From: Diphasiastrum complanatum
Lineage: Eukaryota; Streptophyta; Lycopodiopsida; Lycopodiales; Lycopodiaceae
Direction: 5' to 3'
DNA length: 64,000 nucleotides
Assembly: GCA_029204225.1 (NCBI GenBank)
Contig: CM055098.1
Span: forward strand, 6,421,746-6,485,745
The notes below the pieces were generated by a model that was given only the letters and a program-made list of their open reading frames with translations, was not told where the DNA came from and did not search any database. This document shows, one piece after another, positions 9,749 to 59,991 of this stretch (within the stretch, counting starts at the first letter, position 1; the number at the start of each line of letters is the position of its first letter). A program made the position numbers and the translations under genes.

Positions 9749-10028
9749 CTAGAAACATGACACACCAACAGACACATGACCTTCCAAGGCACTATGGCGG
9801 CGATTTGATCTTCAAATTTCCACCTAAATTTGCAAAATGCACATGAATGAACGCAATGGAACATAGGTATGATGGGCATATATGGACAAAGCCAGTGACA
9901 ACCAATGTAGCATTTGATGGAGTTGTTAGGACCAGCTACTGTGTGGGCCAGCTCAAGTGTCCAAGGATGACATGCCCATAGTATGTTAACACCAACAAGC
10001 GAAACCAATCTTACTTTAAAGGACATCA

Positions 10029-28911: not shown

Positions 28912-28995
<84 letters not shown>

Positions 28996-31900: not shown

Positions 31901-32988
31901 AAGAATACTTAACATCACATATCATTTACTTGTATCAGTACCCATTTGGTAGTCCAAGTTTTACCACCTCTCTTACATGTAATAAATATATTAAAACGTT
32001 GGTGAAAGTATTAAAAATATTAACTATATTGGGCAAATCTGGCAGAGGATTTTCAAAACTTTTGGGAATTTTCCAGAATAGTTTTTCAATATATCAGATC
32101 TAGGGAGAAGGTACTGTAAATGTCAAAGCAATCTGAATGAATATCGATCTAATCCAAGCTGAATGTAATCTGAGCTTATAACAACGAGACTATGTCAAAC
32201 CAATCCTTACTCTTTGATATCCCTATTCATTCTATCTAAGCACAAACGAGTTAGGCCAGTTCTCTGCATACTAATAGGGACCCCATAACAGCCTGATAAC
32301 CTATAATTTCAAAAGTTAATCCCAGTAAGAAATGGAGCATCTCAAGGACCCAAACCATATGGGTTTAATGTCTTGTAGTGATATATAACATGTGTGTAAC
32401 TAATTGTATTTGGGTATATTTTGGCATTATGAAGTCACAGTCAGTTCTTTCAATTTTGTTTTTTTATTTTTTCTAATCTGAATGTGCAAACAGCGCCACA
32501 ATGCAACTGTTACTGTAGTTCATTCATATACTCCAAATCCAGCAGAAGTGACACGAAATGCGGATATCATTATTGCCGCCGCAGGTGTAGCACACATGGT
32601 CAGAACAGACTGGCTGAAGCCCGGAGCTGTTGTCATCGACGTTGGCATCAACCCAGTTGAGGTATGCTATTTTTAGAGTATGGCCTTGAGCTCATGGGCA
32701 TGTTTTGTTGCTTGTGGCACTGCTATGTATTTGTGCTAATATGATGTGCCTAGTACTGTGCCTCACAAGGGATTAATATACAATTTTTTTGTCTCATTGT
32801 TCTGAATGCAGGATCCCTCTGCCAAAAGGGGCTATCGGCTGGTTGGAGACGTGTGTTATCGTGAAGCCTGCACAATAGCATCGGCTATCACTCCAGTTCC
32901 CGGAGGGGTGGGTCCTATGACCATTGCCATGCTTATGCAGAACACCTTGGAAGCTGCCAAGCGTGCTTATGACCAGACTGAGGGATGA
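22228..32988 (+). CDS. FOLD: Bifunctional methylenetetrahydrofolate dehydrogenase / cyclohydrolase (FolD), organelle-type
   Basis: Five exons: 22228-22486, 23836-24158, 26854-27090, 32494-32661 and 32812-32988. All introns (1349, 2695, 5403 and 150 bp) are GT-AG and frame is kept throughout, giving 387 residues. The enzyme oxidises 5,10-methylene-THF with NADP and hydrolyses 5,10-methenyl-THF to 10-formyl-THF. Residues 1-86 are Ser/Arg/Ala-rich and unlike FolD, consistent with a plastid or mitochondrial transit peptide. The catalytic segment [11 protein letters not shown] places Tyr141 and Lys145 at the positions of E. coli Tyr50 and Lys54. VQLPLP (188-193), [10 protein letters not shown] (209-218), the NADP-binding GRSNVVGMP (259-267) and PGGVGPMT near the C-terminus are all present. 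The match to plant FOLD4-type plastid proteins is strong from memory. No breaks seen; the gene looks functional. Met15 is an alternative start. Confidence 0.96.
22534..22920. repeat. Degenerate 21-23 bp repeats in FOLD intron 1
   Basis: About a dozen diverged copies of a unit like ACATTATCAGCTCTAGTTAGT lie in a row, starting 50 bp after the exon 1 donor. The first three are closest to each other; later ones are broken up. No function is evident. Confidence 0.75.
22959..23021 (+). repeat. 21-bp tandem repeat, three copies, FOLD intron 1
   Basis: Three adjacent units of GATGAAGTTCTTAGCTGCAAA (one base over a 20-mer), starting at 22959, 22980 and 23001, with a few substitutions in the third. 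Unit length is a multiple of three but it lies in an intron with no supporting coding context. Confidence 0.8.
23101..23312 (+). repeat. 106-bp tandem duplication in FOLD intron 1
   Basis: The block starting ATCCTATACATTTCAAA at 23101 repeats at 23207 as ATCCTGTGCATTTCAAA and runs to about 23312, sharing GGTATATATCC, CAACTTTGAAA and TGAATGATTGGCC. About 85-90 percent identity by eye. Confidence 0.8.
24840..25850. other. GC-richer island inside FOLD intron 2
   Basis: This part of intron 2 is clearly richer in G and C than the rest of the intron. It holds open frames on both strands (24772-24996 -, 25116-25505 -, 25539-25847 +) with no recognised domain. It may be a decayed inserted gene fragment or DNA transposon. 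I could not identify it. Confidence 0.3.
26210..26233. repeat. Perfect 24-bp palindrome in FOLD intron 2
   Basis: The half-site TGCAGCGAATCG is followed at once by its exact reverse complement CGATTCGCTGCA. GAATCG-type motifs flank it on both sides (near 26138 and 26236), and an A-run follows. A similar cluster of GAATC motifs occurs near 57010-57060. Confidence 0.85.
28911..28990. repeat. Compound microsatellite (TG)13(AG)27 in FOLD intron 3
   Basis: Uninterrupted TG repeats 28911-28936 pass directly into AG repeats 28937-28990. The 33686-33756 microsatellite is the same compound array in reverse orientation. Leucine/serine open frames across it are artefacts of the repeat. Confidence 0.97.
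29180..30790 (-). mobile_element. Ty1/copia RT-RNase H fragment inside FOLD intron 3
   Basis: Read on the - strand from 30790: start of RT (EWRKAMQE near 30780), the RT segment with [12 protein letters not shown] (near 30610), a remnant of the KQAPRAW region (near 30375), a DDLILTG-like segment (near 30250), a [10 protein letters not shown]-like segment (near 29905) and the RNase H segment SGYVFSFGS (near 29240). It is antisense to FOLD, without LTRs, and has many breaks; it is an old fragment. Its RNase H end merges into the three-copy repeat at 29280-29580. Confidence 0.8.
29280..29580. repeat. About 100-bp repeat, three copies, FOLD intron 3
   Basis: Three diverged tandem copies share the phrases AATAACTGGGTGTTGTA, GACTCCCACAC and AGCAAATTTA. 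The common phrase starts near 29321, 29426 and 29524, so the period is about 98-105 bp. The array lies at the end of the antisense copia fragment. Confidence 0.7.
30800..32490. other. Remainder of FOLD intron 3
   Basis: No coding or repeat signal recognised. A T-rich tract immediately precedes the exon 4 acceptor at 32493. Confidence 0.5.
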
Positions 32989-33756: not shown

Positions 33757-33877
33757 CGCGCATGCATGCCGGAGCACATGCACATACACAAACTTATGCA
33801 GACATACAGTTATACATGCACATGCTCGCACACAAAGTGAAATGTCATGAAGTATGTTGTATATATTTTTGGATCAA

Positions 33878-33963
33878 TGCGTCTTGGTTTTAAGGGGAGG
33901 CTCGAACCTAGGATTAAAGATACTTTGGATGTCAAGCTAACCAACCAAGCCAACCCTGTTAGG
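33878..33963 (-). mobile_element. Short tRNA-like SINE, copy 1 (86 bp)
   Basis: On the - strand it reads a Pol III A-box-like TGGCTTGGTTGG and a B box GGTTCGAGCC, and ends in AAAACCAAGACGCA. It is flanked by a perfect 14-bp direct duplication TATTTTTGGATCAA (33864-33877 and 33964-33977). It aligns end to end with the copies at 45977-46070 and 47839-47929. There is no poly(A) tail and no protein; it would depend on a LINE for mobility. Confidence 0.85.
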
Positions 33964-34207
33964 TATTTTTGGATCAAAGATGCATTTCATAGTGAAATGT
34001 TCTGCTGTTTAAGCAGATTGAAACACTTAAATGCAATGAAAAAGAACATGCTCGAATTTCTTCAACCCTTCGAAGAACAAAAGCTTTCACTACCAAAATA
34101 TATAAGCTAATATAGGCACCCATGCCAAGTTAATGAACATAAAACAAACATTGCATTTATTTGTATAGTGCATGAACAATCACCAATCTTTACTTTAAGT
34201 ACCTTAG

Positions 34208-34490
34208 GCTCACATGTGTGCGTGAGCAGGGAATTTTGAAGTTTATGTTGAGAAAGCTAAGCCCCCAAGTCAATAGATGGAGAGAAAGCTTATTCTAGAA
34301 TAAGTGCTACTATAGTCAAGGCTATTGTTCTTCTTGAGAGAGTTAAATAAATTTGAGCAGATTCTTATTATCTCATTGATTTTTTTCAAACCTCACGTGT
34401 GTGCGCAGTGCACACTTTTTTTTCACGTTGAGAAAGTGAAGCCAAAGTGCAAGATAGGGAGAGAAGCTTATTCTAGAAAAAGTCAGTCAA
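34208..34490 (+). repeat. Diverged direct duplication, about 185-bp spacing
   Basis: The phrases GTTGAGAAAG, AAGCC and GAGAGAAGCTTATTCTAGAA occur in the same order near 34240-34300 and 34427-34480, each preceded by CACGTGTGTGCG-like sequence. No gene. Confidence 0.6.
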
Positions 34491-34994
34491 GATGCTAAGG
34501 AGACCCCTTTCCAGAAGAACGTTGATGAAAATAAATTTTATAATGATCAATAACTGGTTGTCCAGTAATATGACTGTGAGGTTGGGATATTCAAAACACA
34601 CTTGTGGCATTCCTATGGCCTCGGTTAAGTGTGCCTCTTATCTTACCACTAGATTGAGAAGAGGAGATCACTTTTTAAGATCGGTATGTTGTAATGTATT
34701 GATGATATTGATGCATCAAGATAGATTTGTTATGTATTAAGTATTTTTATTAGGAGTGGTTTTAAAAAAAAAAGACTACTCAGAATTGTAAGAAGCTTTC
34801 TAAACGATGGTTTTCTAGGGGTGAGTTGCAACAACATCTAGGTATTATTAAATAATTGGTAATTAGTTGATTCATTTGTGCGGCAAACATGACTATGCTA
34901 GGTATGACTATCACACATACGTAGTGTGGTCATCTTGTCTTATGGAATGAATGCTGGAATAAAATACGCACGTGTGCACGCCCACGGGAGCGTG

Positions 34995-35019
34995 CACACA
35001 CACACACACACACACACAT
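34995..35019. repeat. (CA)12 microsatellite
   Basis: A CA run in a broader alternating purine-pyrimidine stretch (34970-35045) that also includes CACACGTGTGTGTG. Confidence 0.95.
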
Positions 35020-35726
35020 GCACACGTGTGTGTGCACGCACACACTCTTATATACATTAATTATATTGTTTTTTTGCTACTTGCTTCAAACATGTCGAAA
35101 AAATATCAATTGCTTGAAAATGCTAATTAATAGACTTTTTCAGGTGACGTTTGAAAAGAAGGAAAAAGAACAATGATTGGGTGTTGATCAATATTTGAGC
35201 AAAGGAGAGGACTTATAGTCACCATGAACTATAAATTTTTGCTTTTGCATACCTATGATACATGTTAGGATTATAGTCGATAGTTTTTTAATCGTTAATT
35301 TGGTTCGGCAGTTATAATACCATGATGTTTACGATTATATATGATGACAAAAACAAACATGTCTATATGATGTTAAGTGATACATACAGCTTAGTCGTTA
35401 TCAAATAAAATTTTTGCGGCTCAACTTCCTTGTATGCTTCTACTTGCTTAATAATATTGGTAAGTTGTTAAATGAAAGTTTTTTATCTAATACTTTTATG
35501 TTGGCAGTTACGGTAAAAAACAAATTTGGAATTTATTTCATTATTAATATCTTTAAGTGTCCTTTATGTCTTTTTGAGCTTAGTCGTCTTTATTTTATAT
35601 GGCTATTCTATCAATTTTCCTACTATCATTTTTTAAGATTGTTGTCTTTTTGCTATAATCTTCATTTGCTAAGAATACGTTGGCATTGACTTTGTTGTCC
35701 AGACTACGTTGCATTTCGTTGCTATA

Positions 35727-36215
35727 GTGTCCCACAGTTTCCTTTTCAGCCCTAGGGGTTGTTTTTCTTTTTTGACCATAGAAATTTGATTCGAGCTTAG
35801 GTCTAAATTTATTTCGACCTTGGATTTTTTACCCGATTCGATTTAACCTTGTAATTTATTTTAATCTTGGTATTATGATCTGATTCGTTTCTTGTTTTTT
35901 GATTAGATCCTTCAATTTTTGTTGTACCCGAGACTGGAATTTAGATCCTTTCTGATTCTTGAATTTCAAGTGTCCCACAATTTGTTTTTAAACCCAAGGA
36001 ATCAATTTTTTTTCCTTCCTTTTCAACTATGTAACTTTGATCTGATTCGATTCAAACCCTAGGTCTAAATTAATTTCGGTTTCGTTCCTTCTTTTTTGAT
36101 CTGACATGATATTGGAATTTTGATTCGATCTGAAATTTCATTTCTACCTAATATTAGAATTTTGATCTTGTTCGATTCTTGAATTTCAAGTGTCCCATAG
36201 TTTGTTTTTTAATCG
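35727..36215 (+). repeat. Degenerate tandem repeat, period about 220-243 bp
   Basis: GTGTCCCACAGTTT recurs at 35727, 35970 (GTGTCCCACAATTTG) and 36190 (GTGTCCCATAGTTTG); the last two are preceded by TTGAATTTCAA. Between them GATTCGATT and TTTTGATCTGA phrases recur. The T-rich bias suggests decay of methylated cytosines. No gene. Confidence 0.65.
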
Positions 36216-36719
36216 GGGGAGTTTTTGATATGGTGATTTCTTGTGTGGGACTACAACCACCCCAAAGTATTGTTAAGAGGACATATTGGAAACATTACAA
36301 ATACAATCTATCATGTGCTCCACCATGGTGGCTTAACACGAGTTATATTTCAAGAGGAGGTGTACCGTCCATCAAAAGTTCTCCCTAGCCTAAATTTGTT
36401 GGCCTTGCCTTGAAAAGGCAATACTATGTGTTGAGGTTGATCAATGGAGTTTGGAGTTTGGAGGAAAACCAACACTAAAGGATAAAGCATGGTGGTGGTC
36501 TCAAGTTTTTAGGCTTGGACCTTGGTTAAAGGTGTAGTCATGCTACAGTTTGCAAAATCACGCATGAAAAAAAAATGGACTTGCATGCTACAGTTTGCTT
36601 TTGATTTTGCTTTGCTTTTGCTTTTTGTGAAGTGGTATGCAATCAATCCATAACAAGCGAAAAAAGAGAGAGTGATTTGCATGCACATCAAAGTTTCCAT
36701 GGAAAAAAAAGCTTCAGTC

Positions 36720-38890
36720 GGCATGCAGGAAAGAGAACTCTGTGTGAGATTTCATGTGCTCATTGTACCACAAGTACTTATAGCCTTTCGTTGTGTCCCT
36801 CAGTCTCGTTCTGTCTCTGTGGATTTGAATATGCCCAGATAGAAGTGAGCTTCACCCAGATTGGTCATGTCGAACTCAGAAAATAGCATCTGTTTAGCAT
36901 CCTTCACCAGATTGGTATTGTTGCTGAAAAGCAATGTATCATCGACATACAAAGTTATAATTATAAAGGATTGTTGCACTGACTTGAAGTATATATTTGA
37001 ATCGGTAGTGCTTGGTTCAAAATTGTGTTGGATGAGGAATGTGTTGATTCTCTAAAACCAAGCTGTGGCTGATTGCTTCAAGCCATAAAGTGTCTTGTGG
37101 AGTTTACAGACATCATGCTTCATACCTTCGTGAATGTATCCTTCAGGTTGTAGCATGTAGATGTCTTGTTCGATGACTCCATTCAGATAAGCTGTCTGTA
37201 CATCAAGCTGATGTACTTCGAGGTCGGCTGCTGCAGCATACGATAGGAGAGCTCGGATCGATGAATGCTTGACTACTGGACTAAAAGTCTCGTTGTAGTC
37301 TATGTTGGGGATCTGAACGAACCCTCGTGGTACTAGTCGTGCCTTCCTTCGATCAATTGTTGCGTTGTACTTGATTTTGAAGACCCATTTGCAATTGATA
37401 AGATTGGAGTCTGGTAGGCTAAGTGCCTCTTCGACAGATGTCGGTTCCTACACTAAAAGATAGGCAGACTCAAGAGTATACCTTGTGGGCTGTGTGTGCA
37501 CTCGACTTGATCTTCTTGGAGGAGCTAATGTCGGCTGATGATCCACTCTTTGGATTTGTCGTTGCTAAGTACTAGCAACTTCTTCGTCTGACTCGCTGTC
37601 GAGTATTTTTGATCGACTATGGGCATGCTTGAGCCAGAGGCTCTGATTGTCGTGTTGATGGTAGGTGTAGAAGATTCACTTGAAATTTTATCCTTGCCTT
37701 TGAATTCGATGAATTTATCCTCGATAAAGACTGTATCCCTGCTAAAACAAATTCTGCTCGTACAACTTGTAGGTGTTGTCAGATGAAGTGTATCCGATAA
37801 GGATGGTCTTGAGACCTTGGAAGTCGAATTTCTTCCTTGTCTCCTTTGGGATCTGCGCGTAGGCGATGCATCCGAATCCTCAAAGGTTCTTCAGTAAAGG
37901 CTTAGAGCCTGTCCAAATTTCGTGTGGTGTTTTGCATGAGAGGGCCTTTGTCGAACATCTGTTCTGGATGTAAGCTGTAGTGGAGACAGCTTCAGCCCAA
38001 AAGCTCTTTGGCAAAGGTGTGTGTGTCAGCATGCATTTGGCTGACTCAACAAGTGTGTGATTCTTTCTCTCGGCTAGGCCATTCGATTGAGGCGAATAAG
38101 GTGTGATAAACTGTTGTTCAATGCCTTGGCTCTAGCAGTACTCCTTGAATTCGGTAGAGATGTACTCTCCATTGTTAGACCTTAGGGCTTTGATTGTCTT
38201 ACCAGCCTCTTTCTCTACACGCTCCTTGAAGATTCTGAAACAGTTGAAAGCTTTTGATTTTTTCTTGATAAAATAAACCATAGTCCTTTTGAAAAATACA
38301 TCAATAAAAGTTATAAAATATTTTGCATTCTTCAGTGAAGAATTTTGCATTGGGCCACATATATCTGTATGTACAACATCTAGTAATCCTCTAGCAGTAT
38401 GTTGATGGCTTGATCTAAATGGTTTTGTGGCATGTTTATCGACTAGACAGTCTTGAAAGATGGGTAATTCGACTTTCCTATCAGGATAGTCGAGATCAAG
38501 AACAATGGATTGCTTAGACATTTGTTGTGTAGAAGCCTGATTCAAATGACCAAGTCTATAATGCCAAAGTAAACTTTTATTGATTTGAATAGAAGTACTA
38601 AGAGCCTGACTAGAGGCAGAAAAACAATGACTTAATCTGTAAGTATCCATGCCTCTTTCTGAGTGCTAGGATCTTGCCTGTCCTATCGACTACTTTACAT
38701 TGATCACATTTGAATTCTACTTTATGTCCTAGATCTGTAGTTCTACTAACAGAGAGCAGATCTGTTGACAGATTCGGTACATGAAGGACATTTGAAAGTA
38801 GCTTACATATATCTTTGGCAAAGCTCAATCTTATTGTACCTTCACCTTTAATAGCTTGTGTGCTATTGTCACCAAGATTGTCGTAAATAG
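36720..38890 (-). mobile_element. Ty1/copia fragment: end of protease, integrase, first part of RT
   Basis: On the - strand from 38890: a post-catalytic protease segment (GDNSTQAIKGEG near 38885), the GAG-pre-integrase segment (LLWHYRLGHL near 38560), integrase (VHTDICGPMQ near 38370, GEYISTEF near 38155), the linker, and RT up to just past the YVDD position (near 36930), fading out by about 36850-36720. The gag and the catalytic part of protease are absent: it joins directly to the LTR at 38890. It has several breaks and is an old copy. Confidence 0.85.
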
Positions 38891-39633
38891 AGAGGACAGG
38901 CAGCGGAAGTTTGAGCGTAGGAACGGAAACACAACAGTTAGCGGCAGAAATATTCAAGATGAATCATTCATACAAAATTGCACAAATGAACAATACAGTC
39001 GTGAGACAAAAATTGCACTCTGAATAATATCAATAGTGAGTACAATGACTTGAAGTAATAACTTCAGCTTGTTGAGCGTGATAACGCTGGCTACAGAAAC
39101 ACTTTGATAATAATAATAATCTTCTTCTTTTGATTCACCTAGTAGTATATGTATTTACAAGTGTCCTAAAAAATATCTTACAAGCATTGAATGCTATTTA
39201 CTCCAGTCTTTGTATATGTACAAAGTAGGTAACCGCCCTTGGGATATTTAGCGGTCCAATTGTTTTTAGGGTTGATGATAAGTTGGCGACATCAGTCTGC
39301 CACTGTTGGAAAAACCCGAAGGTGCCTTTGAACAGGGACGACATGCAAGTCCCGAAGGTGCCCAAAAAGACGAATGCAGATAAATGCAAAAAATCCAAAG
39401 GTAGGCCTGAAATGGATTCCAAGGCATTCTGGCCACTGTGTTGCATTTTTTCCGAAGGTGCAAAAAATGCAAAGAAGACAAAAAAGGCGAAGGTGCCTTA
39501 AAACAATTAGGCACAAAAATCCCTAAGGTGCGGGAAAAATGCGACAGTTTGAAACATGTAGTCGGCCTTTGGCTATTTTCAGGATGCTCATCACTTGAAC
39601 GATTTGTTAAGGCTGAGCATAAGAAATCTAACA
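38890..39633 (-). repeat. LTR of the permuted copia pieces
   Basis: On the - strand it starts TGTTAGATTTCTTATG right after the purine tract AGGGGGGAG. It aligns with the LTR at 52044-53077, including the shared start, the CCGAAGG-type repeat section and the GATAACGCTGGCTAC segment. Its far end (near 38890) is cut: the TTTTGTGACA terminus seen in the other copy is missing where protease sequence begins. Confidence 0.8.
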
Positions 39634-40415
39634 CTCCCCCCTAATGTGGATCCTAAAAAGACCTTGATCTTCAGATTTAACATATCATTAAATCTGAGAT
39701 GTGGCTCCTTTGATAGAGCCTTTGTGAAGTAATCTGGTGCCATGTAGTTTGTTCTGCAGAAAACTAATGCTACTTCCTTGCTATGCACTTTCTCTCCAAG
39801 GTAATGATACCTGATTTCGATATGTTTGCTTTGAGAGTGAAATCTCGGATTGAGAGATAATGGTATTGTGCTTTGATTGTCACAATAGATTGATGTAGGA
39901 AGAGTTTGTGCAAGGTTGATGTCTGCAAGTAGTTGCCTTAGCAAGATCGCCTCTTTGGTTGCATTTGTGGCAGCTATGTATTCAGATTTCGTTGATGATA
40001 ATGCAACTGAGGTTTGCTTCCAGCTGTTTTATGAGATTGGGCCTTGGTTGTATAAAAATACAAATCCAGAAGTATATATTATGGTATGGACATCACCTGC
40101 CCAATCCACGTATGTGTAAGCTTCAAAAATGTTGGCAGTTTGGCTGTCTCCATAGCGAATGCTGAAAGTTTTCGTTGCTTGGATGTACTTCATGACCTTT
40201 GTTAGCGTTTTCCAATGAGTTAAGCCTAGATTTGATAGGAAGTGGCTAAGTGTACTGATTGAATATGCAAAGTCTGGTCGCTTGCAGATCATTGCGTACA
40301 TCAGTGAGCCGATGATGGATTGAAACGGATAGCATCTCATTTCCTCCTTTTTTGCCTCAGTTTGAAGAGACTGTTCCTTTGATAACTTTAGTCCGATCAT
40401 AGATACTTGACATGC
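39634..40415 (-). mobile_element. Ty1/copia fragment: end of RT and RNase H
   Basis: On the - strand from about 40415: IGLKLSKEQS and the IIGSLMYAM segment at the end of RT, then RNase H (VDWAGD near 40110, YCDNQSTIPLSLNP near 39870, HIEIRYHY near 39820, YFTKAL near 39725), and a purine tract leading into the LTR at 39633. It covers just the portion absent from the piece at 36720-38890. It has several breaks. Confidence 0.85.
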
Positions 40416-40612
40416 AATCATGATGGATCTTAGATACTTGACATGCAATCATGATTGATCATTGATACTTGACATGCAATAGTCTAAACTGACATGGATA
40501 GATACTAGGCAATGGAGGGCATGACATGCAAGAGTCTAAACTGACATGCATGGTCATTAGGCAATGGATGACATGACATGCAAGAGTCTAAATTGACATG
40601 CATGGTCATAGG
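40401..40612. repeat. Short tandem repeats built on TTGACATGCAA
   Basis: First a 31-32 bp unit (GATACTTGACATGCAATCAT...) starts near 40402, 40433 and 40464. Then a unit of about 57-60 bp (ACATGCAAGAGTCTAAACTGA...) follows two to three times up to about 40612. The array begins exactly where the copia RT fragment stops. Confidence 0.8.
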
Positions 40613-41348
40613 ATATGGTTTCTTATGACATGCAAATGATTCTCAACAACCATTCATATATATGCATATCAAATTCATGAACATACATACCATGGTTTCA
40701 GAAGATGATGAAAGCGAGAGAGAGTGTGTGTGTATGTTTGTATGTGATAGAGAATGTGAAAGAAAGTGAGAGATCCAAGAGGGTTTGAGCTTCAAAATCC
40801 TCCAATCCACAATTCAGCATAGCCTCCTTGAGCCAATGCTTCAAGCTTCTTTTCCAAAGCACCTATACACAAGAACAAACAATAGGGAAGAGCTTGGATG
40901 CATAATCATGCATCCTCTTGGTAGTGGGGCGCATTTCCACTTATATAGAGAGTGGAGAGTCATTCCAAAGTGAGTGAGGTGTCAAGTTCAAGTGCATGAG
41001 GTGTGTGGAAGACCTTATTTGGACTATAGATGAAGTGGAGTGCATGAATGAGGTGTATTAGTTAGAGGGGGTGAGTGGGTGAGGTGTATTAGCTTGGGAG
41101 GGATATTGTGATGACTTGGCATATGAAGTGAGAGTGTAGGAGGGCGCTCCATTCTAGGTGTCAAATAGCCTAGAATGCATGTAGCAAAGTAGGTGGGAAG
41201 TAGGTGGTACAAGGTTTAATCTTAACTTTTATTTACATAAAGTTTTTCATTGTCACAACTTGGGAATTCACCCAAGTGCAACCTATGAAAAGGCCAAAGT
41301 ATATGCTCATCTTGTTTTGCATAATAGTCATCAATTTCTAAGCCCTTG
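40613..41348. other. Intergenic, nothing recognised
   Basis: Purine-rich on the + strand in part (AGAGAGAGTGTGTGTG near 40712; GAGGTGTATTAG occurs twice near 41042-41092). No coding signal. Confidence 0.45.
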
Positions 41349-41460
41349 TTTCTAGAGGTTGCCCATCCTCAATCATGGTCATTGGCACTCTTTTTCTAGA
41401 GGTTGCCCATCCTCAATCATGGTCATTGGCACTTTTTTTCTAGAGGCTGTCCATCTTCAA
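41349..41460 (+). repeat. 44-bp tandem repeat, about 2.5 copies
   Basis: The unit TTCTAGAGGTTGCCCATCCT followed by CAATCATGGTCATTGGCAC recurs with starts near 41350, 41394 and 41438; the first two are nearly identical. Confidence 0.85.
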
Positions 41461-41592
41461 TCATGGTGGACAAGGGTCAATAGGGTGATCAGACCCTTGG
41501 CCTTGTCCTATTCTTTATAGACTCTTCTGAGCCTTCATTATAAACTTAGAAATAAGCCTTCCTTATAGACTCCTATGAGCCTTCATTATAGA

Positions 41593-42399
41593 TGTTAGCA
41601 ACTGTGCTAACACAGAGAAAATAAAAAAAGAAATAAATAAAACTCCGTGGCATGTGTTTTGTAAGTCCACATATGAGTATTTGTCAATAAATTTCAACCA
41701 TGGCATGTGTTTTGTAAGTCTATGAGTAGAAGCTTAAATAATGATAAAATAGCTTAAACTTAGATTTAGAACTTAGACTTAGGAAACTTAAGATTAGAAA
41801 TATTTTATCTTAAGTTTTCCTAAGCCAAGAAACTTTGAAGTTCTAAATTTTAAGTTAGAAGTTCTATAAAGGCTAGAAACAGATTAGTCCCATAAGTTAG
41901 TAGACACTTATGGAAGACCCTCCTTGCCATAAAAGGAGAGGTATATGCATTGTAAACAACACTTTGTGATTAAGGAAAAATTACTATTGTGATTATCTTG
42001 TATTTCATTGTGTTCCCATTGGAAGGTGCATAGCTTGAGAGAAGGTGCACGAGCCTCCTCTTGCCTCCTTTCATTGGCCTTTAATTGTGGCATGGTTTTA
42101 ATTGTTTATTGCTTAGTTTAGCCGCAATTCTTATTATCTCCCTTTGGGTGTTATGTAGGATTTAGCAATCTTGCTAGTTGGGTTTGCCTTAGAAAGGAAT
42201 TTTATTGTTGTTATTAATTAGCTTTATTTCCGTTTTGGGCACTAGTTGGGTAAGCCTTAGTGCTCTCATTCCTGTTGATTCTTTCCATATTTCCGTTGAA
42301 GCTTGTTGTAGAAATTTAAAAAGTGGACGAATCCCTACATCCCTATACTACACTCGTAAGTAGATCTGGCCACCGCACATGCAAGAAATACTTCCAACA
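41593..42399 (+). repeat. 5' LTR of the gypsy element (807 bp)
   Basis: It starts TGTTAGCAACTG and ends CTTCCAACA, one base before the primer site. Sequence from about 42111 to 42385 matches the - strand of the window's right end (GCTAGTTGGGTAAGCCTT, AGTGGACGA, GTAGATCT), so another copy lies there. The left boundary has no second LTR to confirm it. Confidence 0.65.
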
Positions 42400-42400
42400 T

Positions 42401-42415
42401 TGGCATCGTTGCCGC
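42401..42415 (+). promoter_or_regulatory. Primer-binding site, tRNA-Asp-like
   Basis: TGGCATCGTTGCCGC resembles the TGGCGCCGTTGCCGGGGA site used by Athila/Tat elements, with a few differences. It follows the LTR end by one base. Confidence 0.6.
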
Positions 42416-45379
42416 TTTTTAAGTATTTTTTACCTAGCTTCTTTTCCTTCTTTTTTTTTTTCTTGCTTCCGTGTTGTATGTTTGCTTATTTGTCTGTCTC
42501 TATCTACCAACAAACAGCACGCGCCGTCTCTCCAGGTCCTACATGAGCTGTGGAGCAACTTATCAAACCGGGGAGAAGCAACAAAAGAGTCAACTTGGGC
42601 ATTTTCTTTAAAAAAAAGTGACCCAAGTGACCTTTTTCAAAACCAAATAGGTATATCAAAATTCGCCAGCCTGTCTACAGCCCTAACAGACCCTGATCTT
42701 TCATTTTGTCACCTCCACAAATTCTGACCACGGTCAGATTTTGAAAAAACAGCTTGATATACTGTCAAAATCCCTTATTTCTCACCCAAATCTTTGTTCT
42801 AGAATTCGTCGACTTCACTGAGGCTAGATTTCATCAAGATCAGTCCTCCAGCAGCCCCGCGAATTCTATCTCAGAGGTTTTGCCTGTTTACTGTCGGAAA
42901 ATCACATTTTCCCATATTCTCTATCTACCAGTCAAACCTCTTTATTAGAATTCGACACCAAGCCTCAGAATTCATTCTCAAAGAGTACGATTATCCTGTC
43001 CTACCTGAAATTCTGAAACTACAATTTTTTCCAAAAAATCTAAAAAAATCACTATTCTGACATTCAGAACTTCCTGTCAGAATTCGTGAGTATTACAGTA
43101 CGATTTATCTGCCTCTCCACGATTTCTCAGCTTGTCCGCAAATTCTATCACGACCAGACAGACCAATTTTTTTGTTCTACATTATCAATTCCTCAAGCAA
43201 ACTGCCCTTTTGCCAAGTGCAGTACTAACCTGCTCATCTGTATTCTGCATCATGTCTCGTGACTGTGCTGAATCTTCTAATCCGACTCCTCCACGACTAG
43301 AACGAAGAATTCCACGTATCGATGCACCAAAGTACGATGGCAAATCCGACCCAGTCCGATTTCTCCAAGACTTTGATAATGCATGCCATTTTTATGGAGA
43401 TACCTCTAAAACTAAAAAGCTTCGTCTATTTTCCATGGTACTCTATGGCATCGCCAAGGAGTGGTACTTGAATCTCGAAGCTCCTGATCTTGCTTTTTGG
43501 ACCACCCTCAAAGATGCTCTCATCAAGCATTTCAAACCATCCAAACTGACTCAGAGCCTGTTCATTCAAATTACTCATATCAAGATGCGTCGCGAAGGGT
43601 CTGTCCAAAGCTATATTGAGCGTTTTAAATGTCTCAAAGTAGAATGTGTTGATGAAAATATCACCGAACGAATGGCCATAAAACTATTCTTAGTTGGATT
43701 GCCTAAAAACATCTGTCGTGAACTCAAACCAGTTGACCTTTATGATCAACTTAAAGATGTGATGATCGATGCTATCCGTGAAGAAGACGAAGTTTCCGAC
43801 GATGACTTTGACCATCCTGAGAAGAAATCTAAGAATCCGCACCGTCCTAATCACCCAAAGTCTGATAATATTGCTCAGTCTTCTGAACTTTTACATCAAA
43901 TGGAAACCTGACAAAAAGCTCAACAATCTTATATGGATAAACTCACTGCCGATTTTCAAACCGCCATGAAACAGATTGCTGAGAAATCCTTTCCAACAAG
44001 GGAAAATGTCTGGTATCTAATCTGCTCACAACATCACACTGCTAATGAATGCCCTCAACTGCAAAATCATTTTTCAGCAGCCACCAGACCCACCATCTAT
44101 TGAGCATACCACCTTTACCCGTCACAACAACCTGTGCCACGACCAGGGGTTTACCAACCACGACCACTTGCACCAAATCAATACTCACCCCACGTCAATA
44201 GTTTGTTGTTAACCAACCTCCCCCACAAAACGCTGTCCATTATCTTGATCCGAATACCATCGATCCGGCCACCTACTATGTGGAAGACAATACTCAACCG
44301 CAGTACTCTACTGAAACGGTTGTTTATTATACCTATGATTCTAATGCTCAACCAGTGAATCCCAATACCCAAGCTTACAATCCAAACCAAGCTGTCTTTG
44401 TCGCACATCAACTACCCGCAATACGAGAATGTTTTATCTGTGCAGGTAAACATTCTAGTATTCGTTGTCCAGATAAACTTCATTTTCCTCCAGCTTGTCA
44501 AAACTGTGATATTGAACATCACGTGAAGGACTACCCATCCCGATCTAAGTCAGCTGCTCCCGTCTGTTCAGTGCAAGTAGAAACCTTACCCATCGACACA
44601 CATCCCGCTTGGGTCTTGACTCGGGCACAAACCCAACGCCAGGCCCCTACACTTGCACCCAGCACAACTCAATCGCAGGCTGTTCCTCCAAGTTAAGATT
44701 CTACCCCGATAGTTTACCCTCACCCATCTGAAGAAATTCGGCTGCATCATTAGTATCGCCAGCAAATCCGCAATGCCGACCAACAATCTTCCTCTTCCCA
44801 TAAAGTACCTCACAAGCCCTTGGAAAGCAAAACTCTTAAAGGTACTGAAGTTTGGGGAGATGTACTCCAAGCCAATGTCACTTTGCCTTTCCATGTACTT
44901 TGAAAGCATGCTGGCCAGTGGAAACAACAGATCCAATCCAATACCACCACCACTACTGACGAGTTGCTTGAAATGCCCTTACATCTAACCAATCCACTCA
45001 GCAAACGAGGCAACATCAGAATCCCAGCTACTTATCATCAATCCCGTGAAGTTTTAGCAGTACTCGATGGAGGCTCCGAGGTCAATATCATTTCCACATC
45101 TCTCATATGGAATGGAATCTGAGAGACAAGCTAGCCAAACCCACTTGTCAGCTTCGGATGGCTGATCAAAGTGTGGTCTGACCTACCGGTTTCCTTCCGC
45201 ACGTGTTGATCAAACTAGGAGGTCTCAAGTTTTTTGTTGATCTCGTAGTACTTGATATTCCTAATAATGCCTATTCTTATGAATTACTACTTGGTCGTCC
45301 GTGGCTCACCAATGCACGAGTCGTTCATGACTGGAGCAAAGGCCGAGTCACTTTTGGAAATCGTGACAATTGTTTCATA

Positions 45380-45717
45380 ACCAGGTGGCACTAGGATTTT
45401 TAGTTTGTAGTGCATTCTGTCCGTAGGTGGATTGGTCAGCACAGGTGCATATCGATCTACATAAGCCAAATGCCTTCTGGCTATTTGTAAATTTCTCATC
45501 GGGCAACCTCGACATGGATGATTAACTCCACATTGTGCACAACAGGGTTCAAATGTTGATGGATCCCCTCGATGTGGACATTCGGCTCAATGATATTTTC
45601 CTCCGCATCCATAGCATCTTACCGAGTGCAATACACCATCGTCTCTAAGTTGATAGCTATACACTGGTAATAGATTCCCCTTAGGATCTCCCACAAAATA
45701 GATTGGTAGGCTATTGT
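45380..45717 (-). mobile_element. Gag-like zinc-knuckle remnant, split by the gypsy insertion
   Basis: On the - strand this reads CYGCGGKYH and then CCAQCGVNHPCRGCPMR, two zinc-binding motifs in the spacing seen in the gypsy gag at 44425-44545, but in opposite orientation and from a different family. The same reading continues on the far side of the gypsy element, at 55836 to about 55900. It is therefore the older target into which that element jumped. A fossil with at least one break; a host zinc-knuckle gene is a less likely alternative. Confidence 0.55.
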
Positions 45718-46267
45718 TGTTATGGAATAGTCCTAATATGGTAGACCGGCCCTCCAATACTCGAGATTATTGGTCACGCCTAGATTTACTTCCATGACAA
45801 GGCTTGTTTGTGACTAATTACCTTGAGAGGACCCAGACACTGTAATTGAGACATATGGAGTATTGCATGTACGTGTGACAGATATAGGCAGGAGGGCTGC
45901 ATGAAGAGATGTGATCTATTTATAGTTGACCTGCATGGGAGTTGCATGGTTTCATGCACATGACTCTACTCTCTATGTAATGCTTCTTGGTTTCCAATGG
46001 AAGGCTCGAACTTGAGACCAAAGAAACTTTGGATGTCAAGCGTTAACCAATTGAGCCAACTCCCTTGGGTTACTCTCTATATAATGAGGTGAGGATTCTC
46101 CCGTCGACATATTGGGTTTAGGTTACCAGTTTCTCTCTTCTCCTCTTGCTCACATGGCATGGCTTGGGGGCTAGATCTAGGTTTGGTTGGGCGGTTTGGC
46201 TCCATAGTCTCTCTCTTATGGTGTTCTCCTATCCTCATCTTAGGGATTGTCCTCTAGGATCTTTACA
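45718..46267 (+). repeat. 5' LTR of the nested gypsy element, carrying a SINE
   Basis: TGTTATGGAATAG to GATCTTTACA, ending one base before the primer site. A TATA-like CTATATAATGAGG lies at 46076-46088, directly beside the SINE at 45977-46070, which was inserted just upstream of it. Confidence 0.85.
45977..46070 (-). mobile_element. Short tRNA-like SINE, copy 2 (94 bp), in the gypsy 5' LTR
   Basis: On the - strand: A box TGGCTCAATTGG, B box AGTTCGAGCC, end CCAAGAAGCATTAC. It is flanked by the perfect 10-bp duplication TACTCTCTAT (45967-45976 and 46071-46080). It is absent from the sister 3' LTR, so it inserted after the gypsy element did. Confidence 0.9.
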
Positions 46268-46268
46268 T

Positions 46269-46280
46269 TGGTATCAGAGC
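46269..46280 (+). promoter_or_regulatory. Primer-binding site, initiator tRNA-Met type
   Basis: TGGTATCAGAGC is the standard plant LTR-retrotransposon primer site complementary to the 3' end of initiator tRNA-Met. It stands one base after the 5' LTR. Confidence 0.85.
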
Positions 46281-46636
46281 CCGACTAAGATGCGGTCATG
46301 GATGGGATGGAGACAAGCTCTACATCGATATGGAAGCACATGGATGTATGTCCGGATTGGTGTGCAGAACTCTCAATGGGGAAATCGAGTTTGGATCCTC
46401 TAATTCTGGTATGAAGCATATTGGCAAGAAGAGTCGTAAAGTGCACTTCCACTGGATTATCTTTTTGTTAATATTGCTTCTAATTAGCATGATTCATGTC
46501 TGATTTTTTTGGAACTTTGAGGGAACCCTTTTTGATGTTGTATGATTTGTGTACAAATCCAGCAGCTTGTTTTCCATATCATTGAAGCTTGTTTTCCATA
46601 TCATTGATGATTGATAACACACAATACAGGTTTATG

Positions 46637-46778
46637 TTTTTTGATAGATTGAATATGTTCAGTTTATCCTGGAAAACAAATTATGAGAACCAAGTTTATG
46701 ATTCTACTTTTTTGATAGATTGAATATGTTCAGTTTATCCTGGAAAACAAATTATGAGAACCAAGTTTATGATTCTAC
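46637..46778 (+). repeat. Exact 71-bp tandem duplication
   Basis: The unit from TTTTTTGATAGATTG to TTATGATTCTAC (46637-46707) is repeated at 46708-46778 with no difference that I can see. It is therefore much younger than the gypsy interior that contains it. Confidence 0.9.
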
Positions 46779-46826
46779 GGTTTGCATGTGAGGATTCAGA
46801 TTTGAAAACATAATCCACCGGTATTA

Positions 46827-46928
46827 TAGACCTTAAGTGAACTGCTGTTGTATCTATTCTTCAAGGATGTATTATATGCTAAATTGTAGACCTTAAGTGA
46901 ACTGCTGTTGTATCTATTCTTCAAGGAT
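46827..46928 (+). repeat. 42-bp direct repeat, 60-bp spacing
   Basis: TAGACCTTAAGTGAACTGCT and the following bases to CAAGGAT occur at 46827-46868 and again at 46887-46928 without visible differences. With the 71-bp duplication and a smaller one at 46564-46605, this forms a cluster of recent duplications. Confidence 0.85.
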
Positions 46929-47838
46929 ATGCTGCGGAAACCATAGACTTGTTGAAGTAAATCGTCCTAATTTGTGTGTGCGCTTTTGTATTCCCTGGAA
47001 ATCTTTGACGTGGATACTTCCTATTTGATATGAACTTGCGAGTTATGAAAGGGAAAGTTGATGGAAAGGATTGGAATAAGACATGCAGAACCCTGTAAGA
47101 AGCAGTAGAAGAGTTATAACCTTGTCTGAACTTCGGAGTTTTTTGGTTGTCTGTAGTCTGTGTTTCCTCTAAGAGGAGGAAATTGTGTTCAACCTCTTCT
47201 AAACTTCGAAACGTGTATATTCCAGTTCACAGAAGTGGCAAATCAAGTTGAGAGGATAAAACTTTGATTTCTTGACTACTATTGAATTGGTTGTGGTAGC
47301 CTGCTAACAGACTCGAAGAAATCCTACTGGCTGTAGAAACGAGTAAGAATAAAGTTTTTTTTCCCTTTTGGATGTTTTGCATGAAAAAGCAGGATCCTAT
47401 TACCTTTTTTTCTAGGCATGGAACAACACTGATGGGAAAGATGTGAGTTCATCCAATGAGGCCATCCATTGCTGTCTGGAAAACAGATTGGTTTTCCCAG
47501 TAAAGGGCGCAGTTGGGAGGTACTATTGGATGGAACTTGAGCACACTTATGAAAAATCCCAGTTTGGCCATCGTGACAACGATTGCTGCTTGCTGGTGCT
47601 CTGAGATTGGAGGCTGTTCGTGGGATCAATCATTGCTTGATTAATGAAAGCATTTGCAAATACTCGCTGTCAGATACTCGTTGCTAGCACGCTGAAGGTT
47701 CCTGGTACTGAAAGCTGTTGAAAGCTTTAGGCACCTCATTTCTTCTCTGCAATCACCTGCAAAAAAAAATACCTTGGAAGGCTGCCTGGGAAAATCAATG
47801 CTGATTGGATGATCACTAGCTTCATCTTACCACATTGA

Positions 47839-47929
47839 ACCCAACGGGGTTGGCTCAGTTGGTTGGCTTGGCATCCAAAGTTTCTTTGGTCCCAGGTTGG
47901 AGCCTCCCCTTGGAAACCAAGAAGCATCC
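47839..47929 (+). mobile_element. Short tRNA-like SINE, copy 3 (91 bp)
   Basis: A box TGGCTCAGTTGG, B-box region GGTTGGAGCC (one change from consensus), end CCAAGAAGCATCC. Flanked by the perfect 11-bp duplication TACCACATTGA (47828-47838 and 47930-47940). It sits in the gypsy interior and is closest to the copy at 45977. Confidence 0.9.
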
Positions 47930-50900
47930 TACCACATTGATTTAGCTCATCATGGATTGACCGTGGTTGGTTGTGCGATCCAGTGTGGCGGCTCAGTATT
48001 CCATCGATGGCAAGAATGAGGGATGGCGGATGTGGCTGTGGCGGCTGGAACGAGGTTAAACCCATTCCTGGAGGCTAAAATCCTTTTAGGTTTGCATAAC
48101 CTTCAAGTTGGTTTCTCTTTTGCATGGGCTAAAAGTAAGGGTTATTGGCTTTTTGCTTTTGAACACATACATTGGGGTTTAAATTTGGTTATCCCAATAA
48201 ACCTTTATGGGTTTAAAAATGTATTGAATTGTTTAGCATATGAAGAGAGCGTATGTTTGATAATGGTTATTCCATTATCGGCTACTTTTCCAGTAATGTA
48301 TGGGAAACAATTTGATAGGTAATAATGGATTACCATAAGTAAACCTTATATATGGATATTGAAGGCCATAACCAATGTTGTGGGACAATATAAGTTTTGC
48401 TATCCTAATTTTTGTTTTCATGGGTTACCTTTTTTTAAGACGGTATCCAATACAAGGAAATTCAATTTTTTTGATACTGTGCTTGATGGTGACTAAACTT
48501 TGGAAGCTAACTTCTTCCCAAATCGAAAGAGTAAATTTTAATTTTTCCCTTTCTGATTTTCGAACTTGGTTAAAAGTTTGAAATATATTACTTGTCCGAG
48601 ATATTTCTAATCGGTATTGCTCGTTGGAAATGGATCAAGGGAACGTTTGTGCAATATACTAGTCATAATTAATTTTAAAACCGTCAAACAATGTGAAATG
48701 GCCAGATAAATGAGTGATGATAGACTTTATCCGATCAATGGAATCTTGTTTGGATACAGTTTAAGAGTTTTTGAAATCCTATTGGTAGGATTTCCATTCA
48801 TGTAATTTTATATTTTGAGTTTGAATAGTTTTTGACAATAATAATGGAGTAATGCCAAACCAGTGAATAAAAAGAGAAAACAGTCCAATTTTATTGAAAA
48901 AATTGTAATAATAGGAATTAAAAAGTTGATTTCATTTCCAGTTAAGTCCTGTGGTAAATTATATTCACAGATCATAGTAGTAGTGTTTTTTATACTAGTA
49001 GATGATTTTTGGTATATTGGTTATTCAGCCCAGGTATAGAATAGAAATGAAATTGTTTCATATTTTTTTTACGACAATTAATTTTTAATAGTTACTAATG
49101 TCGTTACGTCTTCTTGATACTTTAGCGAAAAGATATTCAGGGGATTGAAAATTCTAAGGAGGGAAGAAGAGTGGACATCAGTGATAGTAAGTGTGATTGG
49201 GAAATGTATTTCACAATTAGGATTTTGGTAATCTCAATAAATAATTGCTTAATATCGGTTAGTAAATTCCTAGATAGAATTCATTTAGTTGAATTCATAA
49301 CTTATATCTTTGTAACCATTGAGTTATCTGTAGTTTTGGATGTCAATTGTGATGTTCGAAGTAGAATCTGATACATGGATTACAGTGAATCTGTTAATTT
49401 GATAGAAGCTCTTGGATCCAAGGGGATTTGAAGCTTATCATTAACCAGAAAGGATCAGAGAATGTAATATTGAACCATGTTAATTCTTTTGCTTAAGTCA
49501 CAGAATCAGATGTGGATATGTGGTATCCATCTTATAGGCATGCCAGTCATCCAAATGAATGGATTCTCCAGTGTTTTGGGAACAAGAGATAATATTCTAT
49601 ATGAATTATAGGACAACTAGATGATCAATGGATCTCTAGAATATTAGATAAGGCGGTTAAGGGTTTTCTAGAAGGAAAAGTTGATGGTATGGGACATCAT
49701 TAAATTTGGAAAAGAAATTTCAGGACTGTAAAGATATGATGATCAATGGTGTGTTTTAGTACCTAGTCGCGATATGGGAAAAAGAAAACCATTCGGTCAA
49801 ATGTGGGGTATTTTGGGATTTTGAGGCTTAATCTAGATCCCAATGTGGCATCTCACTATTTACAAAATTCAGAGGCCCTCAAATCTATTTCTAGCCTTTC
49901 TAATTAATCCTTTACTTCTTAGTTATTTCTCTAATATAAGACATCAGACTGGTTTATATGATTCTTTCCAGCATGAAGTTATTCTTCTGGAAGACTGTTA
50001 TGTCATATAAATTACTTAATTTCATTAAAAGGAGGGGTGAAGTAGTGGGATAAAATTCTATTTGGGAATCTGTAGGTTGCATAGTTTTCGGAAGAGAACC
50101 AACTGTGGTATAGAAATGAGATTTGGTCTGAAAGTAATTTCGAATAGATTCAGAGTAAGATACCTAATTAGAACTTTTTGAATAAGAGAAATTCTCTAGG
50201 GATTGTAGACAATCTGGATCTAGAACAGGTTTGAAATTTGAATCATTATCTATAAGTAGTATAATAAAATGTCAAAGGTTGCTAATTCCATTTTGATTGG
50301 AATAAAAGTAAGTTTGATTAGAATTTAAGTCTGAGAGTTCTATATTGGATCAACCTAATCTTATTCTTAGTACTAGGATCAGAGAGGGGTTGATTGAGTG
50401 GAAGAAATTATGCTATTGGAGGAAATTGGATTGGAAAACTGTTGAGAGTGAATTTTATGCATCTCAGAGATTTTTTGGATATGTTATTTACTCATGAGAA
50501 ATAGAAAATTTTTTGCAGCTAAGTCACAAGATCTCAGTGAGATATGTGAGTAACATATGTGGGTTCTGAAGGAATCTGCCAAATAAGAGTGTGTTTATGT
50601 ACTGGGCCATAGTGAGATTATTCACATATGCGCACGATTAATCTTGTATGAATCTACTATGTATTCCTGGTTACTAGGGTTATTTGGTACACTTAACCTA
50701 GTCGGTAAACATAGACATATGATCAAGCATTGTTTTGACAGATACTTGCAGAGTTAACAAATTTTTGTATAGAAGATTTATGGATTAACTTATAAATGAT
50801 TTGGATAAGGATTTGAATGTGGTGTTATACTAGTATAATTGAATTCTTCACCTAGACATTTGAGACTTCTGAATCATTGGCAATTAACTTGACTAGTTGA

Positions 50901-52001
50901 TTACTCCAAGATGAAGTTAATTGGTAAAACTATCAATGTGATGTGAATTCACTAGGAACTAATGGTTTTTGGATTATATTGCTTGTAAGACGCATGATTA
51001 GTGAATCATTTGGTTCATCAGTTAAAATTATGTGCATCGGATATAAAGTATTCTTGGGATAGAGTATTTCTTATTTAAGAAATAGACTCAGCTCATTAGT
51101 GATTATATCCCAGAGCGTTCAATTCGATAACGAATCTTAATGAATCCAAGAATAATATATGAATTGATATTCAGCAGGACTTTGGGTATCTAGATTTGAT
51201 TCTAGATTGTAATCTAAAGTGTTTGTAGTTGAAGATGATTGTCATTTTGGTATGCGTTCAGTCTTTAATTACCAGTGGTTTATAGAACTTGAATCTTGCA
51301 CTTCAATTAAAGAATCTTATTGGAAGAATAAATCCAGTATTTTCTTAGTGGAAAGATTTTGGAATGATTCTCATTTTTCTTGAGTTATGTTGGACATATA
51401 CTCCAGTATCCTCTAAATGATTAAGTGTGGCTTTGGATTTCAGAAAATTATGATTGACGAATCATACGAATCTAAATCTTTATGGTTGATGGATCATAAA
51501 CAATTACTTAATTGTTGTTAGTGAATTACAAGGAATTGTGATGATTCTTAAGTGTGATGACTAATTTTTGATCTATTAATTGAGTAAGAATTCGAATCAG
51601 TGTTTTGAATCTCTCTACTCTTTTATTGAGAGGTTGTGGATCTCACAAAAATTCTCACAAGGAAAGTTATTTTACTTGTAAAGAATTTAATTTATTTAGT
51701 GGATGCTAGTCTACTATAGTTTATGGTCTGCAGATGCTTGAGTACAGTTTTTCATTTGATTGGATCTCCAGTTATCATAGGAGACAGACAAGTCTATTAA
51801 GATGAATGAATGCTATTTTCTTGCATTTGGTGCTAGAAATAGGATACAATTGGAAATAGGTTTATTACTGAGTACTTGTTTGATATGAAAGTCAGACTAA
51901 GAATAATGATTTTCATAGTTAATATTGTAAGATAAAGAAACTGTAATTCTTTCCTGTTTTGAGGAGCTTCTAAGGATAGAAGCAGTTTAAGGAGGGAAGA
52001 A

Positions 52002-55481: not shown

Positions 55482-55486
55482 CTAAT

Positions 55487-55835
55487 ATGGTAGACCGGCC
55501 CTTCGGTACTCGAGATTATTGGTCACGCCTAGATTTAATTCCATGACGAGGCATGTTTGTGACTAATTACCTTGAGAGGACCCAGACACTCTAATTGAGA
55601 CATATGGAGTATTGCATGTACGTGTGACAGCTCTATATAATGAGGTGGAGATTCTTCCGTCGACATATTGGATTTAATTTACCAGTTTCTCTCTTCTCCT
55701 CTTGCTTCACATGGCATGACTTGGGGGCTAGATCTAGGTTTGATCTAGGTTTGGTTGGGCGGTTTGGCTCCATAGTCTCTCTCTTATGATATTCTCCTAT
55801 CCTCATCTTAGGGGTTGTCCTCCAGGATCTTTACG
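55487..55835 (+). repeat. 3' LTR of the gypsy element, second piece
   Basis: It continues the LTR exactly after the CTAAT duplication (ATGGTAGACC) and ends GGATCTTTACG, followed by the ATTGT target duplication. It lacks the 78-bp block and the SINE seen in the 5' LTR. Confidence 0.85.
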
Positions 55836-59780: not shown

Positions 59781-59991
59781 CAGCTGTGCAGCAACGAAAC
59801 AGCAAGATGCACCGTGAATCACTCAAACCCCTTGATGCAAGTCACGGAGAAAAAGCTTCCCACAGATCTCAAATATATCGAATAGAGGCTTTAAAGCACG
59901 TGAACAGTAAATGCAATCACTGAATGAATAACTACACTCTGCAGTCCGGCTCAAACTTTCTTAAGCAAGAAAAACACGGTATTACTATTAT

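What the first reader, a model, noticed from the sequence alone, without database searches (positions are those of the whole stretch)
33878..47929. A very short tRNA-like SINE family, three copies each with its own target duplication
Copies at 33878-33963 (-), 45977-46070 (-) and 47839-47929 (+) align end to end at 86-94 bp and are flanked by perfect but different duplications of 14, 10 and 11 bp. All carry an A-box-like TGG(C)T..(A/G)(N)TTGG and a B box (GGTTCGAGCC or one change). They end in AAACCAAGAAGCAT with no poly(A) or poly(T) tail. Most plant SINEs are longer and have a tail, so this looks like a minimal, tRNA-head-only SINE. I cannot tell whether the family is already catalogued.
Basis: partly seen in the sequence, partly recalled or inferred. 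Interest (0 to 1): 0.75.

Follow-up and report, generated by a model that had tools for sequence, protein, structure and literature searches.

The report
Tiny tailless SINE-like plant mobile element
Three copies of a roughly 90-letter DNA parasite sit in this stretch of plant DNA, each with its own duplicated landing site; they lack the usual tail, and two of the three landed exactly where the target reads CAT.

Summary
Three copies of one 86-91 bp element (pairwise 81-89% identical, no fourth copy detected) lie at 33878-33963 (-), 45980-46070 (-) and 47839-47927 (+). All three have A- and B-box-like motifs at SINE-like positions, no TTTT, no terminal inverted repeats and no simple-repeat tail. 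One copy interrupts a Copia-type LTR; a paralogous LTR lacks it, but also lacks 85 bp beside the target.

A new feature: in two copies the target duplication starts with CAT, matching the element's constant 3' end GCAT; in the third a CAT lies nearby but out of register. I read this as a small Pol III-type retroposon copied by target-primed reverse transcription, primed by ATG-3' of the nicked target on the GCAU of its RNA. Neither the L1 (TT|AAAA) nor the RTE (upstream T-run) site signature is seen.

Not shown: a parent tRNA (Rfam finds none), a LINE partner, copy number, or whether the family is catalogued; no host genome or plant repeat library was available. It works like a SINE but fails the usual tail criterion: a tailless SINE-like variant. 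Predicted RNA structure lacks covariation support.

The parts
33878..33963 (-). copy c1 of the element (86 bp), CCTAAC...GACGCA
33964..33977 (-). c1 5' target duplication TTGATCCAAAAATA; a CAT lies at 33980-33982, two bases outside it and out of register
33864..33877 (-). c1 3' target duplication TTGATCCAAAAATA
33941..33952 (-). c1 A-box-like TGGCTTGGTTGG (1 mismatch)
33898..33908 (-). c1 B-box-like GGTTCGAGCCT (1 mismatch)
45980..46070 (-). copy c2 of the element (91 bp), inserted antisense into a Copia-type LTR
46071..46086 (-). c2 5' target duplication CATTATATAGAGAGTA
45967..45982 (-). c2 3' target duplication CATTACATAGAGAGTA (its CAT overlaps the element's 3' GCAT)
46047..46058 (-). c2 A box TGGCTCAATTGG (0 mismatches)
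46002..46012 (-). c2 B-box-like AGTTCGAGCCT (2 mismatches)
47839..47927 (+). copy c3 of the element (89 bp), closest to the majority sequence (86/89)
47823..47838 (+). c3 5' target duplication CATCTTACCACATTGA
47925..47940 (+). c3 3' target duplication CATCCTACCACATTGA (its CAT overlaps the element's 3' GCAT)
47851..47862 (+). c3 A box TGGCTCAGTTGG (0 mismatches)
47895..47905 (+). c3 B-box-like GGTTGGAGCCT (2 mismatches)
45733..46266 (+). Copia-type LTR (approximate ends) that hosts c2; followed by a primer-binding-site-like TTGGTATCAGAGC at 46268 (meaning of the motif recalled)
55482..55834 (+). paralogous LTR without the element; holds CATTATATAGAG (element strand) once, but lacks the adjacent 85 bp and the last 4 bases of the duplication

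Best explanation
A family of very short (86-91 bp) non-coding, Pol III-type retroposons that work like SINEs. Inferred cycle: the internal A and B boxes drive Pol III transcription; the RNA is taken by the reverse transcriptase of an unidentified LINE; the LINE endonuclease nicks the bottom strand so that the primer ends in ...ATG-3'; that end pairs with the constant GCAU end (or internal site) of the RNA, and copying starts there. This leaves a fixed 3' end, no tail, and a 14-16 bp target duplication that tends to begin with CAT. Shown here: three separate insertions with individual duplications, constant ends, box-like motifs, absence of a tail, CAT at the first position of the duplication in two of three. 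Inferred: Pol III transcription, the LINE partner, and priming by pairing.
For: Three end-to-end copies with unrelated flanks. Individual duplications of 14/14, 15/16 and 15/16. A and B boxes start at element positions 13 and 57-59, close to the +14/+54 anchors used for plant SINEs in PMC2774510 (passages seen). No TIR: the inverted ends match at 7-10 of 25 bases. c2 lies inside an LTR whose paralogue lacks it. CAT is at the first position of the target duplication in c2 and c3; in c1 a CAT starts 5 bases before the perfect duplication. Two of three in strict register is expected with probability 0.0015; random triples with two exact and a third within +/-5 occur in 116 of 1,000,000. The paralogous LTR has CATTATATAGAG, so at c2 the CAT probably belonged to the target before insertion. 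Noll et al. 2015 (PMC5322556; abstract and two sections read) report tailless retropseudogenes with target duplications and argue for priming inside the RNA, a precedent in mammals.
Against: Only three copies, and the CAT pattern was noticed after the fact. In c1 the bases in strict register opposite the element's end are TCT, not CAT, so either 3 bases were lost there or the rule is loose or false. The A+B match is imperfect in all three (2 mismatches each). No tRNA homology is detectable. The elements have no oligo(T), so the source of a defined RNA 3' end is unexplained. A narrow motif search found no LINE reverse transcriptase in the window, and no second carrier of the 3' end beyond isolated 11-16-mers with mismatches was seen. 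The paralogous LTR is not a clean empty site. The rod-like fold has no covariation support (the covariation measures were reached by 320 and the paired percentage by 385 of 500 shuffles) and unremarkable energies (z -1.0, -1.9, +0.1 for c3, c2, c1).
Confidence: 0.65

Rival explanations
1. The three are 3'-truncated copies of a longer, tailed SINE: priming occurred repeatedly at an internal GCAU instead of at the tail, so only the head was copied.
For: Tailless forms truncated at defined positions, explained by internal priming, are documented in mammals (PMC5322556, sections read). The three ends coincide at GCA(T), as a preferred internal site would give.
Against: No longer relative was found in the window, and 3 of 3 copies stop there. 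If truncated forms were a minority class here, three of three would be unusual (inference).
Confidence: 0.17
2. They are independent tailless retropseudogenes of one host small RNA gene (a tRNA-like RNA), not a self-sustaining SINE family in which copies give rise to copies.
For: No tail; box-like motifs; copies differ from each other by 11-19% and each could be an aged copy of one gene.
Against: No Rfam family matches the window at its gathering score, and only chance-level hits to other families appear for the copies up to E=10. A 2-bp insertion in c2 could be a subfamily mark, but three copies cannot decide.
Confidence: 0.12
3. A small DNA transposon (MITE) or Helitron fragment.
For: Short, non-coding, dispersed.
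Against: No terminal inverted repeats (7-10 of 25 bases match). Duplications of 14-16 bp are too long and variable for cut-and-paste families, and Helitrons make none (general knowledge).
Confidence: 0.03

Closest known systems
tRNA-derived plant SINEs (for example maize ZmSINE1-3, Au, p-SINE1, TS)
   Same: Short, non-coding, internal A and B boxes at about +13 and +57, individual target duplications.
   Different: No poly(A), poly(T) or simple-repeat tail; 86-91 bp in all; no detectable tRNA match. Ohshima 2013 (PMC3747384, passages seen) says that more than half of the flowering-plant SINEs known then end in poly(A), and p-SINEs and Au-like SINEs in poly(T).
Tailless retropseudogenes of therian mammals (Noll et al. 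2015, PMC5322556)
   Same: No tail, target duplications, fixed 3' ends, priming proposed inside the RNA.
   Different: Those derive from known host RNAs through L1. Here no source RNA is known and the duplications start CATT, CATC and TTGA, not AAAA.
Simple tRNA SINEs such as rodent ID or Vic-1 (recalled, from no call)
   Same: Little more than a tRNA-like head.
   Different: Those keep an A-rich tail and a recognisable tRNA parent (recalled).
RTE-clade LINEs and their SINEs in plants and reptiles (PMC13295347, passages seen)
   Same: The first base of the target duplication agrees with the element's 3' terminal sequence, as in c2 and c3.
   Different: Those have a T run about 10 bases upstream of the cut and a microsatellite-like 3' end. 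None of the three sites here has TTTT in the 20-25 bases upstream, and there is no microsatellite.

Membership tests
tRNA-derived SINE | Short non-coding element in several dispersed copies with constant ends | tested here: met
   3 copies, 86-91 bp, unrelated flanks
tRNA-derived SINE | Individual target duplications of roughly 8-20 bp | tested here: met
   14/14, 15/16 and 15/16
tRNA-derived SINE | Internal Pol III promoter (A and B boxes) | tested here: met
   By sequence only: 2 mismatches in total per copy; 12-44 of 20,000 shuffles do as well. Transcription was not tested
tRNA-derived SINE | Head recognisably derived from a tRNA | tested here: inconclusive
   No Rfam tRNA match up to E=10 in 3 of 3 copies; ARAGORN default 0, relaxed mode inconsistent. 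The host's tRNA genes were not available
tRNA-derived SINE | 3' tail of A, T or a simple repeat | tested here: not met
   0 of 3 copies have one; the element runs straight into the target duplication
tRNA-derived SINE | Mobilised by a partner LINE | not testable with these tools
   No host genome held; a narrow motif search of the window showed no LINE reverse transcriptase
Element mobilised by an L1-type endonuclease | Cut site TT|AAAA (as given in PMC13295347) | tested here: not met
   0 of 3 sites; the duplications start CATT, CATC and TTGA
Element mobilised by an RTE-type LINE | T run about 10 bases upstream of the cut and a microsatellite-like 3' end | tested here: not met
   0 of 3 sites have TTTT in the 20-25 bases upstream; no microsatellite
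MITE / TIR DNA transposon | Terminal inverted repeats and a fixed short duplication | tested here: not met
   7-10 of 25 bases match between the inverted ends; duplications are 14-16 bp and differ

The most novel reading that the evidence does not exclude
A plant SINE-like family that has dispensed with the tail: about 90 nt of Pol III-type RNA whose fixed GCAU end pairs directly with CAT-bearing targets, served by a LINE whose endonuclease and RNA recognition match neither the L1 nor the RTE signature. Search tools that require a tail would overlook the class.
Probability: 0.3. Interest if true: 0.6.

Novelty: new variant of a known kind. Interest (0 to 1): 0.4.

Why it matters
SINE-Finder, as described in PMC8825457 (passages seen), looks for a tail 20-500 nt behind the B box. 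A ~90 bp family without a tail could be missed by such searches and might be common in large plant genomes. If the CAT rule holds over many copies, it would give a direct readout of how an unknown plant LINE chooses its target and where it starts copying, and bear on the open question of how plant LINEs recognise their RNAs (raised in PMC3747384).

Tried and rejected
Looking for more copies: no host genome is held. Exact-pattern scans of viral contigs (5 of the 8 allowed) and genome contigs (2) gave nothing or loci holding the searched 18-mer (2; 28; 7). All 37 loci were rescored with a model of the element without flanks: best 14.5 bits; eight reach E 0.007-0.009, but the loci had been picked for an 18-mer of the element, so these E-values are not independent. 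With a similar model that includes short flanks the real copies score 96-113 bits. I take all 37 as chance. blastn of c3 against plasmids (50 records, E limit 1, the 5 listed at E 0.7) and phages (3 records, E 0.8) gave only matches over 27-40% of the element, chance.

RNA structure: c3 and c2 share a rod-like minimum-energy fold; c1 keeps only part of it and its centroid differs. Sliding the pairs by 1-3 columns lowers the paired cells from 90% to 31-63%, but the structure was taken from c3, and covariation is at shuffle level, so I make no claim from it. A CTTGG-AAA-CCAAG hairpin next to the 3' end is complete in c3 only, shortened in c2 and lost in c1 (read from the sequence); not pursued.

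Clean empty site: I hoped the LTR paralogue at 55.48-55.83 kb would be one, but it also lacks 85 bp beside the target and the last 4 bases of the duplication. It only supports the view that the element is foreign to the LTR and that CATTATATAGAG was target sequence. A deletion from an occupied copy is not excluded.

LINE partner: a regular-expression search of six frames for [FY]xDD found two Copia-type matches and one at 41104 in a frame interrupted by stops. This is narrow: other LINE remnants could be missed. Only 8 of the 31 listed ORFs were scanned with Pfam.

CAT control: first used +/-3 for c1 (17 of 200,000). On checking, c1's CAT starts 5 bases before its perfect duplication, so the control was redone with +/-5: 116 of 1,000,000.

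Literature: 9 of 10 searches used. Searches on tailless SINEs (2 papers), plant SINEs and related terms, fern genomes and the literal 3' end (2 papers on other subjects, seen in the listing only) showed no description of this element in the rows listed; several lists were cut to the best 10-20 papers, and one search returned none. The library lacks most subscription papers and no repeat database was searched, so this does not show that the family is uncatalogued.
Full report
What was checked. The window is, by its genes, plant nuclear DNA rich in LTR retrotransposons. Eight of 31 listed ORFs were scanned with Pfam: Copia-type reverse transcriptase (RVT_2) and integrase, a retrotransposon gag, and a FolD catalytic domain; three had no match. 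The FolD (methylenetetrahydrofolate dehydrogenase) gene is spread over 23.86-32.98 kb with introns of several kb. That the host is a plant is my inference from this content. No genome is held for it, so everything below rests on three copies, the window and the literature.

The copies. A model of the three copies finds exactly these three (E 3.4e-34, 2.7e-32, 4.2e-29; next hit E 1.1). They are 71/88, 74/87 and 79/89 identical over aligned columns, and blastn finds no similarity among their flanks. Element coordinates from the duplications: c1 33878-33963 (-), c2 45980-46070 (-), c3 47839-47927 (+). In c2 and c3 the three bases CAT at the 3' end can be counted to the element or to the duplication.

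c1 is 14/14; c2 is CATTA[T/C]ATAGAGAGTA (15/16); c3 is CATC[T/C]TACCACATTGA (15/16). Random pairs of sites at the same spacing, with slack, reach this in 17 and 35 of 20,000 trials. Lengths of 14-16 bp that differ in sequence at each site are typical of target-primed reverse transcription (general knowledge).

Insertion into an LTR. c2 lies antisense in a Copia-type LTR (about 45.73-46.27 kb) that is followed by a primer-binding-site-like TTGGTATCAGAGC at 46268 (the motif's meaning is recalled). A paralogous LTR at 55.48-55.83 kb, 94% identical in its two ungapped blocks, lacks the element. It is not a clean empty site: it also lacks 85 bp on one side and breaks off inside the duplication. It does hold CATTATATAGAG once, in the right place.

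Promoter-like motifs. With the patterns TRGYNNANNNGG and GGTTCGANNCC (recalled; the same B box, a similar A box and the positions +14/+54 are given in PMC2774510, passages seen) the A boxes have 1, 0 and 0 mismatches and the B boxes 1, 2 and 2, separated by 32, 34 and 32 bp. Shuffles do as well in 26, 12 and 44 of 20,000. In the whole window only one other pair with a perfect A box and a B box of at most 2 mismatches occurs. The motifs are probably real, but a tRNA parent is not demonstrated: Rfam gives no tRNA in any copy up to E=10, and ARAGORN finds none by default and only poor, inconsistent folds when relaxed.

No tail. None of the copies has an A, T or simple-repeat tail or any TTTT; the sequence AAACCAAGAAGCAT (c1: one change) runs directly into the duplication. 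Published tools expect a tail (PMC8825457, passages seen). The nearest precedent found is the tailless retropseudogenes of mammals (PMC5322556; abstract and two sections read), for which the authors argue for priming inside the RNA.

The CAT pattern. At c2 and c3 the duplicated target starts with CAT, the same letters as the element's end. At c1 a CAT lies two bases outside the perfect duplication (it starts 5 bases before it); in strict register c1 has TCT. Two of three in strict register has probability 0.0015 by chance; random triples with two exact and the third within +/-5 occur in 116 of 1,000,000. This was formulated after seeing the data and rests on three sites. In target-primed reverse transcription the nicked strand would end in ATG-3', able to pair with GCAU of the RNA. 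The alternative is an endonuclease that prefers to cut before CAT; three copies cannot separate the two. The L1 site TT|AAAA is absent (0 of 3), and so is the RTE-type upstream T run described in PMC13295347 (passages seen; 0 of 3).

RNA structure. c3 and c2 are predicted to form a rod in which the strand around the A box pairs with that around the B box; c1 keeps only part of it. Energies are unremarkable (z -1.0, -1.9, +0.1) and the pair counts show no covariation beyond shuffles (320 to 385 of 500 reach the observed values). I draw nothing from it.

Verdict. A real, very short, tailless SINE-like retroposon family (confidence about 0.85 that these are retroposed copies, 0.65 for the full reading). 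It works like a SINE; by the usual definition that includes a tail it fails one tested feature, so it is filed as a variant, not as a plain member. Whether it is already in a repeat library could not be tested. Literature searches showed no description in the rows listed, but the held library is partial.

Noticed in passing
23862-32976 (+): FolD gene (bifunctional methylenetetrahydrofolate dehydrogenase/cyclohydrolase), blocks at 23862-24158, 26851-27087 and within 32434-32976, gaps of about 2.7 and 5.3 kb between them, 65% and 72% identical to a recalled Arabidopsis-like FolD in the first two blocks; copy c1 lies about 0.9 kb behind it.
   Followed up: partly
21382-21443 (+) and 36392-36453 (-): A 62 bp block, 87% alike in opposite orientation (CAAACTCCATTGA..CAACCTCAACACATAGTATTG), possibly another short dispersed repeat.
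   Followed up: partly
5271-8407 and 49459-51944: Two copies of a repeat of about 2.5-3 kb, 81-96% identical in the ungapped blocks listed, nature not determined.
   Followed up: no
59970-60482: Degenerate tandem array of about 95-100 bp units.
   Followed up: no
40470-40625: Three tandem 52 bp units, the second and third 85% and 63% identical to the first, just upstream of the minus-strand Copia-like ORF at 40029-40448.
   Followed up: no
9260-10907: Two open frames of 162 and 292 aa on opposite strands without a Pfam match at E<=0.001.
   Followed up: no
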